The notes under the pieces are model-generated. The model was not told the origin of the DNA. It did not search any database and was given only the letters and a program-made list of their open reading frames with translations. The position numbers and the translations under genes are program-made. This document shows positions 2,493-28,217 of a stretch of 35,239 nt of DNA, in pieces. The stretch comes from Actinomycetota bacterium (GTDB taxonomy: Bacteria; Actinomycetota; Thermoleophilia; Gaiellales; Gaiellaceae): assembly GCA_020029625.1 (NCBI GenBank), contig JAIBJP010000001.1, forward strand, positions 1 through 35,239, read 5' to 3'. Positions within the stretch are counted from its first letter, which is position 1, and the number at the start of each line of letters is the position of its first letter.

Positions 2493-2495
2493 TAA

Positions 2496-2661
2496 GGGTC
2501 CCGTCCAGCAATGCCCGCCATCACTTCTGGCGGCTGCAAAGCGCCACCAGGCGTCGTCCTCGGTCGCCCGCGTATTTGAGTTCAATACGCGGACTCCCTG
2601 CGTCCTAGCCCGGCTCGCTTTTCGCGCGCCAGAAGCGGGGGAGCATCACTGGGCGGGACCC
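2496..2661 (+). ncRNA. Candidate structured RNA / intergenic repeat, family A copy 1 (upstream of lgt)
   Basis: Outer stem 2496-2514 with 2643-2661 (17/19 paired incl. one G-U), inner stem 2524-2532 with 2627-2635 (9/9), hairpin 2568-2576 with 2584-2592 (9/9). Shares GTCCTCGGTCGC (2556-2567) and CTCCCTGCGTCCT (2594-2606) with copies 2 and 3. Confidence 0.7.
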
Positions 2662-2698
2662 CGCACACTCCACCCGCCTCTTCATTCACACTTCGGGC

Positions 2699-3571
2699 GT
2701 GCCCCTGCTCGCCTCGATCCCGAGTCCCTCGAGCGGCGAGGTCCACCTCGGCGGAATTGCGTTGCACGCCTACGGCGTCATGCTGCTGCTCGGGATCCTG
2801 GCGGCGGTGTGGCTCACCGGAGTCCGCTGGACTCGGCGCGGCGGCGACTGGGATCTCGTCTTTCGCGTCGCCATGTGGGGCGTTGCCGGCGGAGTCGTAG
2901 GCGCCCGGCTCTACCATGTCCTCACGAGCTGGGGCGAGGTGCCGGACCCGAAGTGGCAAGGCGTCTTCGAGATCTGGAAGGGGGGTCTCGGCGTGTGGGG
3001 CGGGATCGCCGGCGGCGTCCTCGCGGGCGCGGTCGTAGTGCGTAGCTCCGGGAACTCGGTGTACGCGTTCATGAACGCCTGCGCGCCGGCGCTGCTGCTC
3101 GCGCAGGCAATCGGCCGCTGGGGCAACTACTTCAACCAGGAGCTCTTCGGCAAGCCGACCGACCTTCCCTGGGGGCTCGAAATCGCTGTCCAGAACCGGC
3201 CGCAGCAGTACATCAGCGAGCCGACCTTCCACCCGCTCTTCCTCTACGAGTCCTTGTGGTGCCTGCTCGGGGTGGGCGTCCTCCTCCTGATCGACCGGCG
3301 CTTTCGCATCCGCCCGCCCGGCCTCTTCGCTTTGTACGTGGCGTGGTACACGGCCTTTCGGACCTTCGAGGAGACGCTGCGCGTCGACCCCTCGCACGAG
3401 TACTTCGGCCAGCGGCTGAACTTCTGGGTCTCGATCGTCTTCTTCGCGCTCGCGGTCGTCGCGTTCGTCTGGTCGCAGAGGCGGAGCGCGGAGCCCAGAA
3501 GCCCTCACCGGCCGGCGGCGGTGCCCGAGGGACCGAGGATGGCCGTCCCCAAGGGCCGCGTCCGCCGGTAG
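2699..3571 (+). CDS. lgt: Prolipoprotein diacylglyceryl transferase
   Basis: HAYGVMLLLGILAAVWLTGVR..., GRWGNYFNQELFG, HPLFLYESLWCLLGVG, RPPGLFALYVAWYTAFRTFEETLRVDPS; GTG start. Confidence 0.95.
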   Translation: MPLLASIPSPSSGEVHLGGIALHAYGVMLLLGILAAVWLTGVRWTRRGGDWDLVFRVAMWGVAGGVVGARLYHVLTSWGEVPDPKWQGVFEIWKGGLGVWGGIAGGVLAGAVVVRSSGNSVYAFMNACAPALLLAQAIGRWGNYFNQELFGKPTDLPWGLEIAVQNRPQQYISEPTFHPLFLYESLWCLLGVGVLLLIDRRFRIRPPGLFALYVAWYTAFRTFEETLRVDPSHEYFGQRLNFWVSIVFFALAVVAFVWSQRRSAEPRSPHRPAAVPEGPRMAVPKGRVRR

Positions 3572-3598: not shown

Positions 3599-4327
3599 AT
3601 GAGCGCCGTAGCGGTTCGCGACCTCGACCTGGACCTCGACTCGTTCGAGGGCCCTTTCGACCTGCTTCTGACGCTCGTTCTCAAGGACGAGCTCGAGCTG
3701 GCCGACGTCGAGGTCGCCGGAGTCGTGGCGGCGTTCGTGGAGCGCCTGGCCGAGCGGGCTTCGCCGGATCTCGAAGCTTGCGGTGAGTTCCTCGTTCTCA
3801 TGGCCGCGCTGCTCGAGCTGAAGGCGCGCGGGCTCTTCCCCGACGAGGACGAGCTTGCCTTCGACGATCTGGATCCCGAGGAGGCGGCGGGCGAGCTTGC
3901 GGAGCGACTCGCGCTCTACCGGCGCTTCAAGGCAGCCGCGGCCTGGCTGGAAGAGCGCCTCGCGGCGGAGTCGGATCGGTACTTCCGCCTCGGGCCTGCG
4001 CCCCTCGCTCCGGTCCCGGAACGGCCTTTGGCTCCCCAGGACCCGGTCGCGCTTGCCTCCGCTCTGAGGCAGCTCGCAGCCGATCCGCCTGCTCCCTCGC
4101 TCAGCCACCTGGAGCTCCGCTTCCCTCCGGTCTCGCTCTTCCTCGACCGCTTCCGGGCAGTCCTGAGCCGTCGCCGTCAGTTCGTCTTCGATCGTGAGGT
4201 GGACTCCCTCTCGCGGGTCGAGCAGGCAGTCGCGTTCCTCGCCCTCCTCGAGCTCCGCAAGGTTGGCGAGATCAAGCTCGGTCAGCCCGCCCCCTTCGAG
4301 CCGATCACCGTCTGGAGTGCTTCATGA
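3599..4327 (+). CDS. scpA: Segregation and condensation protein A
   Basis: FEGPFDLLLTLVLKDELELADVEVAGVVAAFVE...GEFLVLMAALLELKARGLFP; followed by scpB. Confidence 0.93.
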   Translation: MSAVAVRDLDLDLDSFEGPFDLLLTLVLKDELELADVEVAGVVAAFVERLAERASPDLEACGEFLVLMAALLELKARGLFPDEDELAFDDLDPEEAAGELAERLALYRRFKAAAAWLEERLAAESDRYFRLGPAPLAPVPERPLAPQDPVALASALRQLAADPPAPSLSHLELRFPPVSLFLDRFRAVLSRRRQFVFDREVDSLSRVEQAVAFLALLELRKVGEIKLGQPAPFEPITVWSAS

Positions 4328-4331
4328 GCTT

Positions 4332-4498
4332 AAGAGCCCCAATCACGATGAAGACCTGTGCCGCTGGGCCGCACTGGACGTCGCGATGCGTTGTCCTCGG
4401 TCGCGCCCGTATCTCTTTCGATACGAGCGCTCCCTGCGTCCTCGCCTCCCACCGCCCATCGCAGCCCAACGACGAGGCTCCATCGTGACCGGAGCTCT
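4332..4498 (+). ncRNA. Candidate structured RNA / intergenic repeat, family A copy 2 (between scpA and scpB; outer stem encloses the scpB GTG start)
   Basis: Outer stem 4332-4350 with 4481-4499 (15/19, including 8 contiguous bp TCACGATG/CATCGTGA), P2 CGCTGGGC (4362-4369) with GCCCAACG (4464-4471), P3 GCGATG (4383-4388) with CATCGC (4457-4462), apical hairpin GCGC-c-CGTATC/GATACG-a-GCGC (4403-4430). Invariant blocks at 4393-4404 and 4430-4442. Confidence 0.72.
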
Positions 4499-5081
4499 CA
4501 GGCTTGTCGAAAACCCGGTGGATCGGTTGGCGCGGACGCTCGAGGCGCTGCTCGTCATCGCTTCGAGCCCGCTCTCGATCGAGGAGCTGGCCGCTGCCTC
4601 GGAGGACGAGACGGAGCGAGTGGAGACGGCTCTCGGGCTGATCGCCTCCCGCTACCGGGAAGGCCGGAGCGGCATCGTCCTCGAGCACGTCGCAGGCGGC
4701 TATGCCTTCCGGGCTGCGCGCGAAGCGGCGGAGGCGTGCGCTCGGCTCGTCGAGCGGCCCGTGCAGCGCGGGCTCTCGCAGGCAGCTCTCGAGACGCTCG
4801 CCGTCGTCGCCTACCTCGGGCCGGTCTCGCGGCCGGAGATCGCGAAGATCCGCGGTGTGGCGGCCGATTCGGCCGTTGCCGGCCTGGTCGAGCGGGGACT
4901 GATCGCCGAGGCCGGGCGCGAGAGCGACGGTGGCGCCGTTCGCTACCGTGCGACGCCGCTCTTCGAGCGCGTCTTCGGGCTCTCCGGCCTCTCCGAGCTT
5001 CCGCGCCTGGACGATCTCGCGGAAGGCTCCGAAGAGCTGCGCTCGAGGCTCGAGGAAGTCGCCGGCCGCCGCGGCGCCTAG
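4485..5081 (+). CDS. scpB: Segregation and condensation protein B
   Basis: VTGALRLVENPVDRLARTLEALLVIASSPLSIEELAAA...LSQAALETLAVVAYLGPVSRPEIAKIRGV; GTG 4485 preceded by GAGG. Upstream in-frame ORF is the family A element, not ScpB. Confidence 0.92.
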   Translation: MTGALRLVENPVDRLARTLEALLVIASSPLSIEELAAASEDETERVETALGLIASRYREGRSGIVLEHVAGGYAFRAAREAAEACARLVERPVQRGLSQAALETLAVVAYLGPVSRPEIAKIRGVAADSAVAGLVERGLIAEAGRESDGGAVRYRATPLFERVFGLSGLSELPRLDDLAEGSEELRSRLEEVAGRRGA

Positions 5082-16491: not shown

Positions 16492-17745
16492 ATGTCCGCC
16501 AGAAGCTTCCTCTTCACGTCCGAGTCCGTCACCGAAGGCCATCCGGACAAGGTGGCCGACCAGGTCTCCGACGCCGTCCTCGACGCCGTCCTCGCTGACG
16601 ACGCCAACGGCAGGGTGGCTTGCGAGACCCTTGTCACGACCGGCCTCGTGATCGTCGCCGGCGAGATCACCACCGAAACCTACGTAGACATTCCGCGCCT
16701 CGTCCGGAGCCGGATCAAGCAGATCGGCTACGACCGCGCCAAGTACGGGTTCGACGCGGATACCTGCGGCGTCATGGTGGCGATCGACGAGCAGTCTCCC
16801 GACATCGCGCTGGGCGTCGACACGTCCTACGAGGTCCAGCACGACCCCGGCGACGATGACCCGCTCGACCGGGCCGGCGCTGGTGATCAGGGGATGATGT
16901 TCGGCTTCGCCTGCATCGAGACGGAGGAGCTCATGCCGCTCCCGATCATGCTCGCTCACCGGATCTGCAGGCGCCTGTCCGAGGTGCGGAAGGCGGAGAT
17001 CCTCCCGTACCTGCGTCCGGACGGAAAGGCGCAGGTGACGATCCGGTACGAGATCGACGAGCACGGCCACCAGCGGCCCGTGGAGATCGCCCGCGTGCTC
17101 GTCTCGACCCAGCATCGCGACGGCCTCGACGCCGACGCTCTGATCAAGCCGGACGTCATCGAGCACGTCCTCCATCCGATTCTCCCTCGCGAGCTCTACG
17201 ACGAGCGGCGCTTCGAGGAGCGCGACTTCGTGCTCGTCAACCCGACGGGCAAGTTCGTGACCGGAGGCCCGATGGGAGACACCGGGTTGACCGGGCGCAA
17301 GATCATCGTCGACACCTACGGGGGGATGGCCCGCCACGGCGGAGGCGCTTTCTCCGGCAAGGATCCGACGAAGGTGGACCGGTCGGCCGCCTATGCGGCG
17401 CGGTACGTGGCAAAGAACCTCGTCTCCGCGGGCCTGGCCGACCGTGTCGAGCTGCAGGTGGCCTATGCGATCGGCGTCGCCCATCCGGTCTCCATCGAGG
17501 TGGACTGCTTCGGGACCGAGCGCGTGCCGCTGGGAAAGATCGAGGAGCTCGTCCGCGAGCATTTCGACCTGCGGCCCGGAGCCATCCTCCGTGACCTCGA
17601 CCTGCTACGGCCGATCTATGCGAAGACGGCGGCCTATGGCCATTTCGGCCGCTCCGACCACGATTTCACCTGGGAGCGGACCGACAAAGCCGAGGAATTG
17701 CGCGTCGCAGCGGGCCTCACGGCTGAGGTTCCAGCCGCTTCCTGA
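16492..17745 (+). CDS. metK: S-adenosylmethionine synthase
   Basis: [64 protein letters not shown]. Confidence 0.98.
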
Positions 17746-26433: not shown

Positions 26434-27687
26434 GTGACCCAGACCGCCACCGAAACGCCCTTCGCCACAATCGAGGAAGCGCTCGAGGACGTCCGGCAGG
26501 GCAAGTTCGTCGTGGTCGTCGATGCAGCCGACCGCGAGAACGAGGGCGACCTCACCATCGCCGCTCAGTTCGCGACGCCGGAGGCGGTCAACTTCATGGC
26601 CACGCACGGTCGCGGGCTGATCTGCCTCTGTCTGACGGACGAGCGCTGCGACGAGCTGGCGCTGGAGCAGATGACCGATCGAAACGAGACTCCGTTCGGC
26701 ACCGCCTTCACCGTGTCGATCGAAGCCCGCGAGGGCGTCTCCACCGGGATCTCCGCCCAGGACCGGGCCCGCACGATCCAGGTTGCCATCGACCCGAGCA
26801 AGGGTCCCGAGGACCTCGTCCAGCCCGGCCACGTCTTCCCCCTTCGCGCCCGTGCCGGCGGCGTCCTCCAGCGGGCCGGGCAGACCGAGGCGGCCGTCGA
26901 CCTCGCGCGCCTCGCGGGCCTCAATCCCGCGGGCGTCGTCTGCGAGGTGATGAAGGACGACGGGACGATGGCGCGCGTGCCCGACCTCGTCGAGTACTGC
27001 GCCCGCCACGACCTCAAGATGATCACGGTCGAAGACCTGATCGAGTACCGCCGGCGCACCGAGAAGCTGGTGGAGCGGATGACCTCGGTCCGCCTCCCGA
27101 CGGCCTACGGGGACTTCAGCGCGATCGCCTTCCGGGAGAAGCTGACGGGCAAGCATCACGTCGCGCTCGTCAAGGGACACGTCGAGGGCGAGGAGGACGT
27201 TCTCGTCCGCGTCCATTCGGAGTGCCTGACCGGAGACGTCTTCCACTCGCTCCGCTGCGACTGCGGCGAGCAGCTCGAGCAGGCGCTCGCGCGGATCGGC
27301 TCCGAGGAGCGGGGAGTAGTCCTCTACATGGCGCAGGAGGGCCGCGGCATCGGCCTCCTCAACAAATTGAAGGCCTACGAGCTCCAGGAGAACGGGATGG
27401 ACACCGTCGAGGCCAACCTCGAGCTCGGTTTTCCGCCCGACATGCGCGAATACGGGATCGGCAACCAGATCCTCGCCGATCTCGGGCTCTCGACGATTCG
27501 AATCCTCACGAACAACCCGAAGAAGATCACGGGCATCGAAGGCTTCGGCCTGACCGTGGTCGAGCAGGTGCCGATCGAGATCTCGCCGAACGACGAGAAC
27601 CGCGGCTACTTGGAGACCAAGCGCACGAAGCTCGGCCACCGGCTCCACCACCAGGACCTCCGCTTCGAGGAGCCCGAGGGCGAGTGA
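26434..27687 (+). CDS. ribBA: Bifunctional 3,4-dihydroxy-2-butanone-4-phosphate synthase / GTP cyclohydrolase II
   Basis: VVVVDAADRENEGDLTIAAQ; RPGHVFPL-like QPGHVFPLRARAGGVLQRAGQTEAAVDLARLAG; HSECLTGDVFHSLRCDCGEQLEQAL; QEGRGIGLLNKLKAYELQ. Confidence 0.97.
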   Translation: MTQTATETPFATIEEALEDVRQGKFVVVVDAADRENEGDLTIAAQFATPEAVNFMATHGRGLICLCLTDERCDELALEQMTDRNETPFGTAFTVSIEAREGVSTGISAQDRARTIQVAIDPSKGPEDLVQPGHVFPLRARAGGVLQRAGQTEAAVDLARLAGLNPAGVVCEVMKDDGTMARVPDLVEYCARHDLKMITVEDLIEYRRRTEKLVERMTSVRLPTAYGDFSAIAFREKLTGKHHVALVKGHVEGEEDVLVRVHSECLTGDVFHSLRCDCGEQLEQALARIGSEERGVVLYMAQEGRGIGLLNKLKAYELQENGMDTVEANLELGFPPDMREYGIGNQILADLGLSTIRILTNNPKKITGIEGFGLTVVEQVPIEISPNDENRGYLETKRTKLGHRLHHQDLRFEEPEGE

Positions 27688-28217
27688 CGGAACGCGCTGT
27701 CGAGCACGCGGCCGGCGAGCTCCGCATCCCCGAGGGGGTCGGCGTGTACATGGGGTCGCCGAACGGCGCCCGCCGCTCGGTCGGGATCGTCGTCGGGCGC
27801 TTCAACGGGAACATCACGTCGCGGCTCCTGGACGGTGCGCTGGAGGCGCTCGGAGAGGCAGGGGTTCCGCGGGAGCGCATCGACGTGATGCCGGTCCCCG
27901 GAGCCTTCGAGCTTCCGCTGGGAGCGATGGCCCTCGCCAAGACACGCCGCTACGCCTGCGTGATCGCTCTGGGCTGCGTGATCCGGGGAGACACCCCGCA
28001 CTTCGAGTACGTCGCCGGCGAGGCGGCGAGCGGGCTCCAGCTCGCGGGGCTCGAGACGGGCGTCCCCGTCGCCTTCGGCCTGCTCACTTGCGACAGCCGC
28101 CGGCAGGCCGAGGAGCGGGCTGGAGGCGAGAAGGGCAACAAGGGCGCCGAAGCCGCGCGCACGGCCCTCGAGATGGCGGACACGCTCTCGCGCCTGCGTG
28201 CCTCGATCCCGCGCTAG
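27684..28217 (+). CDS. ribH: 6,7-dimethyl-8-ribityllumazine synthase
   Basis: IVVGRFNGNITSRLLDGALEAL; VPGAFELPLGA; ALGCVIRGDTPHFEYVAGEAA; GNKGAEAARTALEM; GTG start. Confidence 0.96.
   Translation: MTERAVEHAAGELRIPEGVGVYMGSPNGARRSVGIVVGRFNGNITSRLLDGALEALGEAGVPRERIDVMPVPGAFELPLGAMALAKTRRYACVIALGCVIRGDTPHFEYVAGEAASGLQLAGLETGVPVAFGLLTCDSRRQAEERAGGEKGNKGAEAARTALEMADTLSRLRASIPR

What the first reader, a model, noticed from the sequence alone, without database searches (positions are those of the whole stretch)
4332..4498. Candidate new structured RNA family: three ~165-nt elements with an invariant two-block core and covarying stems
The scpA-scpB gap is almost entirely filled by an element that recurs at 2496-2661 and 22714-22875. 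All three copies are 162-167 nt and in gene-sense orientation. They share GTCCTCGGTCGC and CTCCCTGCGTCCT exactly, flanking an apical hairpin whose stem changes in a compensated way (CCGCGTATT/AATACGCGG; GCGC-c-CGTATC/GATACG-a-GCGC; GCGT-c-CGTATT/AATACG-a-ACGC). The P2, P3 and outer stems differ in sequence between copies but all still pair. Conserved apparently unpaired blocks inside covarying helices is the signature of a functional RNA (ligand- or protein-binding core) or a structured mobile repeat. I do not recognise it as a named riboswitch.
Basis: partly seen in the sequence, partly recalled or inferred. Interest (0 to 1): 0.88.

Follow-up and report, generated by a model that had tools for sequence, protein, structure and literature searches.

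The report
Mobile hairpin repeats in Thermoleophilia genomes
The three look-alike elements are copies of a previously undescribed family of ~165-base jumping DNA hairpins that has spread, in tens to more than a hundred copies per genome, between genes of soil and sediment actinobacteria (class Thermoleophilia); it is not a riboswitch, and the strand that folds well is the opposite of the one first read.

Summary
In detail: three copies in the window, 46 in this 1.47-Mb genome, up to 150 or more in others, no Rfam match, and strong covariation. The elements are insertions. At fmt-rsmB the closest relative has the clean empty junction (...GGTA|AGCGCCC...), and the scpA-scpB gap is empty, without palindrome, in 29 other genomes. 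Ends are inverted repeats next to TA, often CTAG at stop codons, giving a 163-bp unit: a MITE-like element, working like RUP or ERIC. An IS630-family element in a relative shares the CTAG target and TAGTG-type ends, so an IS630-type transposase is the likely but unproven mover. The 'unpaired' blocks mostly pair with each other (GGTCGC/GCGTCC). Helix mismatches are mainly A.C rather than G.T, so the wobble-tolerant strand is the reverse complement: it folds better in 138 of 154 copies (mean 14 kcal/mol; flank control 77 of 154), whichever way neighbouring genes run. Orientation, variable gene context and empty orthologous sites argue against a cis-acting riboswitch. What the structured strand does (single-stranded DNA in transposition, or an RNA made by the element) is open.

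The parts
4332..4498 (-). Element copy in the scpA-scpB gap (structured strand = minus); arms AGAGC..TCACGATG / CATCGTGA..GCTCT
   Evidence: empty in 29 other genomes; minus strand folds at -114.5 against -71.5 kcal/mol
4393..4442 (.). Conserved core of that copy: two blocks around the apical hairpin
2495..2662 (-). Element copy between a short ORF (stop TAG 2490-2492) and lgt; arms GGGTCCCGTCC / GGGCGGGACCC
2556..2606 (.). Core of that copy
22711..22882 (-). Element copy between fmt and rsmB; inserted after TA at 22709-22710; insertion relative to the empty site is 22711-22884 (174 bp)
   Evidence: empty site in G006 (L389), independent insertion at the same junction in G010 (L407)
22772..22821 (.). 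Core of that copy
3599..4327 (+). scpA, upstream neighbour
   Evidence: Pfam SMC_ScpA
4485..5081 (+). scpB, downstream neighbour; its start codon lies in the right arm of the element
   Evidence: Pfam SMC_ScpB
2699..3571 (+). lgt, downstream of the first copy
   Evidence: Pfam LGT
21902..22711 (+). fmt, upstream of the third copy
   Evidence: Pfam formyl transferase N and C domains
22885..24072 (+). rsmB, downstream of the third copy
   Evidence: Pfam NusB + RsmB-F

Best explanation
The elements are non-autonomous miniature transposons (MITE-like, working like RUP, ERIC or Correia elements). Shown: each long-form copy is a ~163-bp imperfect palindrome with terminal inverted repeats next to TA, often in CTAG; there are 9 to 150 or more copies in the element-bearing genomes scanned with the model; copies have inserted into gene junctions that are empty in relatives. 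Because CTAG is often a TAG stop codon, copies sit exactly at gene ends, where insertion keeps the stop codon. Inferred: a transposase of IS630 type acts in trans on the ends, as proposed for RUP. Shown from sequence statistics: the helices are conserved as helices of one strand, the reverse complement of the strand first read, independent of neighbouring genes. Inferred: that strand has to fold, most likely either as single-stranded DNA during mobilisation or as an RNA of the element, with the core helix and its two bulges (purine-rich on that strand) as the recognition site for a protein. In operons the copies lie mostly so that the mRNA carries the less stable strand, as expected if a very stable mRNA hairpin is selected against.
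For: Precise empty site at fmt-rsmB in the closest relative, and a second, independent insertion with different ends at the same junction in G010; empty scpA-scpB junction without palindrome in 29 genomes. Copy numbers 46, 49, 65, 102 and 150+. Ends: 104 of 167 non-redundant copies have inverted repeats of at least 11 of 16 bases, median length 163; near-identical copies in G016 end mostly at YTAG; a copy in G061 is flanked by CTAG on both sides and shares one CTAG with an IS630-family element whose ends are TAGTGTCCTGAG. Tandem arrays of 164-165 bp units. Strand: A.C 71 against G.T 15, 51 against 15 without the commonest site, 26 against 8 by site, the same for both gene orientations; the reverse strand folds better in 138 of 154 copies, flank control 77 of 154; the two variable core positions are helix G's that turn G-C into A.C on the read strand, i.e. 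G.U on the other. Operon orientation 46 to 20.
Against: No autonomous element with the same full terminal repeats was found; the IS630 likeness is limited to the target and the outermost bases. Only 18 copies keep TA at both chosen ends and 27 keep it at neither. The short Solirubrobacterales form (~80 nt plus unique arms after a stop codon, mostly in sense) has no clear TA-bounded repeats, so mobility is not shown for it. Conservation of the core across orders and even in another class is unusual for a MITE.
Confidence: 0.78

Rival explanations
1. A structured RNA family with a host function (3'-UTR or intergenic processing/stability element, or an antisense RNA made from the minus strand), spread by duplication.
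For: Strong covariation, core 96% identical in copies found without using it, wobble-strand asymmetry, short forms in Solirubrobacterales placed 24-30 nt after stop codons in sense.
Against: Unrelated neighbouring genes, both orientations, variable copy number, empty orthologous sites, TA-bounded inverted repeats; no expression data; in operons the structured strand is mostly antisense.
Confidence: 0.12
2. REP-like palindromes moved by a Y1 (RAYT) transposase as single-stranded DNA.
For: Intergenic hairpins with one functional strand, tandem arrays.
Against: Y1 transposases are absent from 7 of 10 element-bearing genomes, including the one with 150+ copies, and the five found are not flanked by elements. 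Replication-strand bias in G061 is weak, 35 to 21 by my count from the positions and GC skew.
Confidence: 0.04
3. Transcription terminators between genes.
For: Stable hairpin at gene ends; 29 copies lie between convergent genes.
Against: Copies lie inside the operons scpA-scpB and fmt-rsmB and directly upstream of rpsC in another class; no T-run follows the hairpin in the window copies; termination would not explain the conserved core.
Confidence: 0.04
4. A cis-acting riboswitch or ligand-binding mRNA element, as in the first reader's main idea.
For: Conserved core within covarying stems; window copies in gene sense.
Against: Structure is on the other strand, copies are insertions next to unrelated genes, no Rfam match.
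Confidence: 0.02

Closest known systems
RUP (Streptococcus pneumoniae) with IS630-Spn1
   Same: About 107-bp intergenic repeat, TA target, ends like an IS630-family element (PMC2229807); here TA/CTAG target and an IS630-family element with TAGTG ends in G061.
   Different: Here 163 bp, class-wide distribution, a conserved core with covarying helices, and only the outermost bases match the IS.
ERIC (Enterobacteriaceae, Vibrionaceae)
   Same: Inverted-repeat element with TA at its ends, intergenic, tens to hundreds of copies, copy number varying by taxon, long stem-loop (PMC2229807, PMC10969869).
   Different: Different sequence and phylum; here a strand asymmetry of wobble pairs and a core kept across orders.
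Correia/NEMIS elements (Neisseria)
   Same: About 105-155 bp, TA at the ends, hairpin; some transcripts with the element are cut by RNase III (PMC10969869, PMC2229807).
   Different: No sequence relation known to me; no RNase III data here.
REP / RAYT
   Same: Many extragenic hairpins near gene ends, tandem clusters (own knowledge of REP elements).
   Different: No Y1 transposase linked; several times longer; bounded by TA.

Membership tests
MITE (miniature inverted-repeat transposable element) | 100-200 bp, no transposase gene, many intergenic copies | tested here: met
   median 163 bp; 46 copies in own genome, up to 150+ elsewhere; intergenic
MITE (miniature inverted-repeat transposable element) | Terminal inverted repeats | tested here: met
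   at least 11 of 16 bases in 104 of 167 copies
MITE (miniature inverted-repeat transposable element) | Target-site duplication (TA) | tested here: inconclusive
   CTAG on both sides of the L424 copy and mostly YTAG ends in G016; TA at both ends in 18 of 104, at one in 59; left TA kept, right changed, at fmt-rsmB
MITE (miniature inverted-repeat transposable element) | Filled versus empty orthologous sites | tested here: met
   fmt-rsmB in G006; scpA-scpB in 29 genomes
MITE (miniature inverted-repeat transposable element) | Autonomous partner with matching ends | tested here: inconclusive
   IS630 element in G061 shares CTAG target and TAGTG ends only; IS1595 candidate rejected
REP/RAYT | Y1 transposase flanked by the repeats | tested here: not met
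Rfam RNA family | Match to one of 4227 covariance models | tested here: not met
   0 matches at gathering score in the window; only chance-level hits in permissive mode
Riboswitch / cis-regulatory leader | Conserved gene context in one orientation | tested here: not met
   neighbour orientations ++ 46, +- 29, -- 20, -+ 14; empty orthologous sites
Functional structured RNA | Transcript from the structured strand | not testable with these tools
   no expression data available

The most novel reading that the evidence does not exclude
The minus strand of the element makes a functional RNA, or is used as folded single-stranded DNA, bound through the conserved core by a dedicated protein that moves the element: a miniature transposon whose mobility depends on a strand-specific folded nucleic acid kept by selection across classes of Actinomycetota.
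Probability: 0.25. Interest if true: 0.85.

Novelty: new variant of a known kind. Interest (0 to 1): 0.6.

Why it matters
Bacterial MITEs are usually short-lived offshoots of one insertion sequence (own knowledge). This family keeps a 25-base core across orders, and in variant form in another class, while its arms change in a compensated, strand-specific way. That makes a testable case for selection on the folded strand of a miniature transposon. It also warns that covariation alone does not prove an RNA gene: inverted repeats of mobile DNA covary too, and the ratio of A.C to G.T mismatches tells which strand, if any, is the folded one.

Tried and rejected
Autonomous IS1595 partner: a transposase in G016 (L327) is bounded by element halves, but its 91% relative in G012 lies in other flanks, so it is an insertion into an element's apical loop, perhaps with an assembly artefact. 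Y1 transposase partner. Other insertion sequences with the same ends at 0.8-3 kb spacing, read from the listed positions (one list was cut): none. Viral contigs: no match. Replication-strand bias: weak, 35 to 21. Insertion into a pre-existing terminator hairpin as the source of the arms: junctions without the element have no palindrome. Reading the element as coding on its minus strand (ARTQGA..ARPRT): core spacing varies by single bases, so no frame is kept. Full-text searches: no paper found on such repeats in Thermoleophilia; subscription papers are not covered.

Full report
The gap-tolerant core pattern GTCCTCGGTCGC-N-CTCCCTGCGTCCT occurs 22 times in the own genome, a 1.47-Mb assembly about 78% complete, and 0 times in the reversed control. 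In 61 genomes of the same family and order, 21 have exact matches. A scan of named genomes stopped at 114 stretches, nearly all labelled Thermoleophilia, Solirubrobacterales, Gaiellaceae or unplaced Actinomycetota. Rfam has nothing.

A covariance model from 87 diverse copies finds 46 copies in the own genome, 150 (the cap) in the 4.6-Mb MAG FR_37, 102, 65, 56, 49, 44, 32 and 14 in seven others and, in the isolate Conexibacter sp. CPCC 205762, 9. Among 199 genomes drawn from the phylum, 9 match, including four of one family of another class, with the core variant GTTCTCGGTCGC / GCGGCC; one of these copies lies directly upstream of rpsC and another follows what reads as the end of rpmB (my reading of the sequence).

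Structure. P2 covaries strongly: columns 31-97 and 34-94 are the two best of all column pairs, and the structure beats shuffles and slid versions clearly on paired cells, double changes and covariation score. The two blocks pair with each other, GGTCGC with GCGTCC. This helix looked invariant only because copies had been collected by the exact core. In 68 distinct copies found by their ends or by position, the core is 96% identical against 76% elsewhere, and its two variable sites are helix G's that mostly become A.

Strand. If an RNA or a single DNA strand is kept folded, G.U (G.T) should be tolerated and A.C should not. On the strand that was read, A.C outnumbers G.T 71 to 15. One apical site supplies 20 of these; without it the ratio is 51 to 15, and by site 26 to 8. 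Shared ancestry lowers the effective numbers, so the p-values should be taken loosely. The asymmetry is the same for copies in sense and in antisense to their neighbours (42:11 and 27:4), which argues against a gene-linked mutation bias. Folding says the same: the reverse complement is more stable in 138 of 154 non-redundant copies, by 14 kcal/mol on average, against 77 of 154 for flanking sequence. For the copy given in the finding the values are -71.5 (z = -5.1) and -114.5 kcal/mol (z = -11.3). On that strand the hairpin is almost continuous and the leftover bulges are purine-rich.

Mobility. In the closest relative by RsmB (85% identical) the fmt-rsmB junction reads ...CGCAGGTA|AGCGCCCGC...; in the window the same junction carries 174 extra bases after TA. 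A third genome, G010, has an independent element with different ends at this same junction. The scpA-scpB junction is empty in 29 other genomes, the genes close together or overlapping, with no palindrome. Recent copies in G016 end mostly at YTAG. In FR_37 a copy is bounded by CTAG on both sides and shares one CTAG with an IS630-family element with ends TAGTGTCCTGAG..CTCAGGACACTA; many copies of the family begin TAGTG. FR_37 also has tandem arrays of 164-165-bp units. A CTAG target explains why ends coincide with stop codons: for the long form the distance from stop codon to core peaks at 55-64 nt.

Two forms. Most copies are the ~163-bp form. In Solirubrobacterales many are shorter: the core starts 24-30 nt after the stop codon of a sense-oriented gene and is held by long, near-perfect arms whose sequence is unique to each copy. 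Polymorphic sites were not found for these, so their mobility is inferred from the shared core only.

Function. In operons the orientation is 46 (++) to 20 (--), so the very stable strand is mostly kept out of the mRNA. This fits selection against an mRNA hairpin and does not fit a cis-acting mRNA device. The structured strand may act as single-stranded DNA during movement or as an RNA of the element; the data do not decide.

Comparison. Published bacterial MITEs such as RUP, ERIC and Correia share the size range, the TA at the ends, the stem-loop and the intergenic sites (PMC2229807, PMC10969869). The present family meets those features and differs by its wide conservation and strand-specific helices. 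It is therefore filed as MITE-like, with the mobilising transposase open.

Noticed in passing
L327 2257-3299 (G016:C159): An IS1595-family transposase (frameshifted) sits in the apical loop of an element copy, flanked on both sides by the same element half in inverted orientation; possibly an assembly artefact.
   Followed up: partly
L424 1368-2530 (FR_37): IS630-family insertion sequence with ends in CTAG directly abutting an element copy; a second one with similar ends in L420 1368-2519.
   Followed up: partly
L292, L295, L362 8571-9014 (FR_37): Head-to-tail arrays of two or three elements with 164-165 bp spacing.
   Followed up: partly
L188 561-620 (G016): A core-less derivative that keeps only the two terminal arms.
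   Followed up: no
L386, L387 (family f10 of another class): Variant elements directly upstream of rpsC and after an apparent rpmB, with core GTTCTCGGTCGC/GCGGCC.
   Followed up: partly
window 24731-28217 and 16492-17745: A riboflavin (rib) gene cluster and metK without any FMN or SAM riboswitch match at Rfam gathering scores; gene names from my reading of the ORF translations.
   Followed up: no
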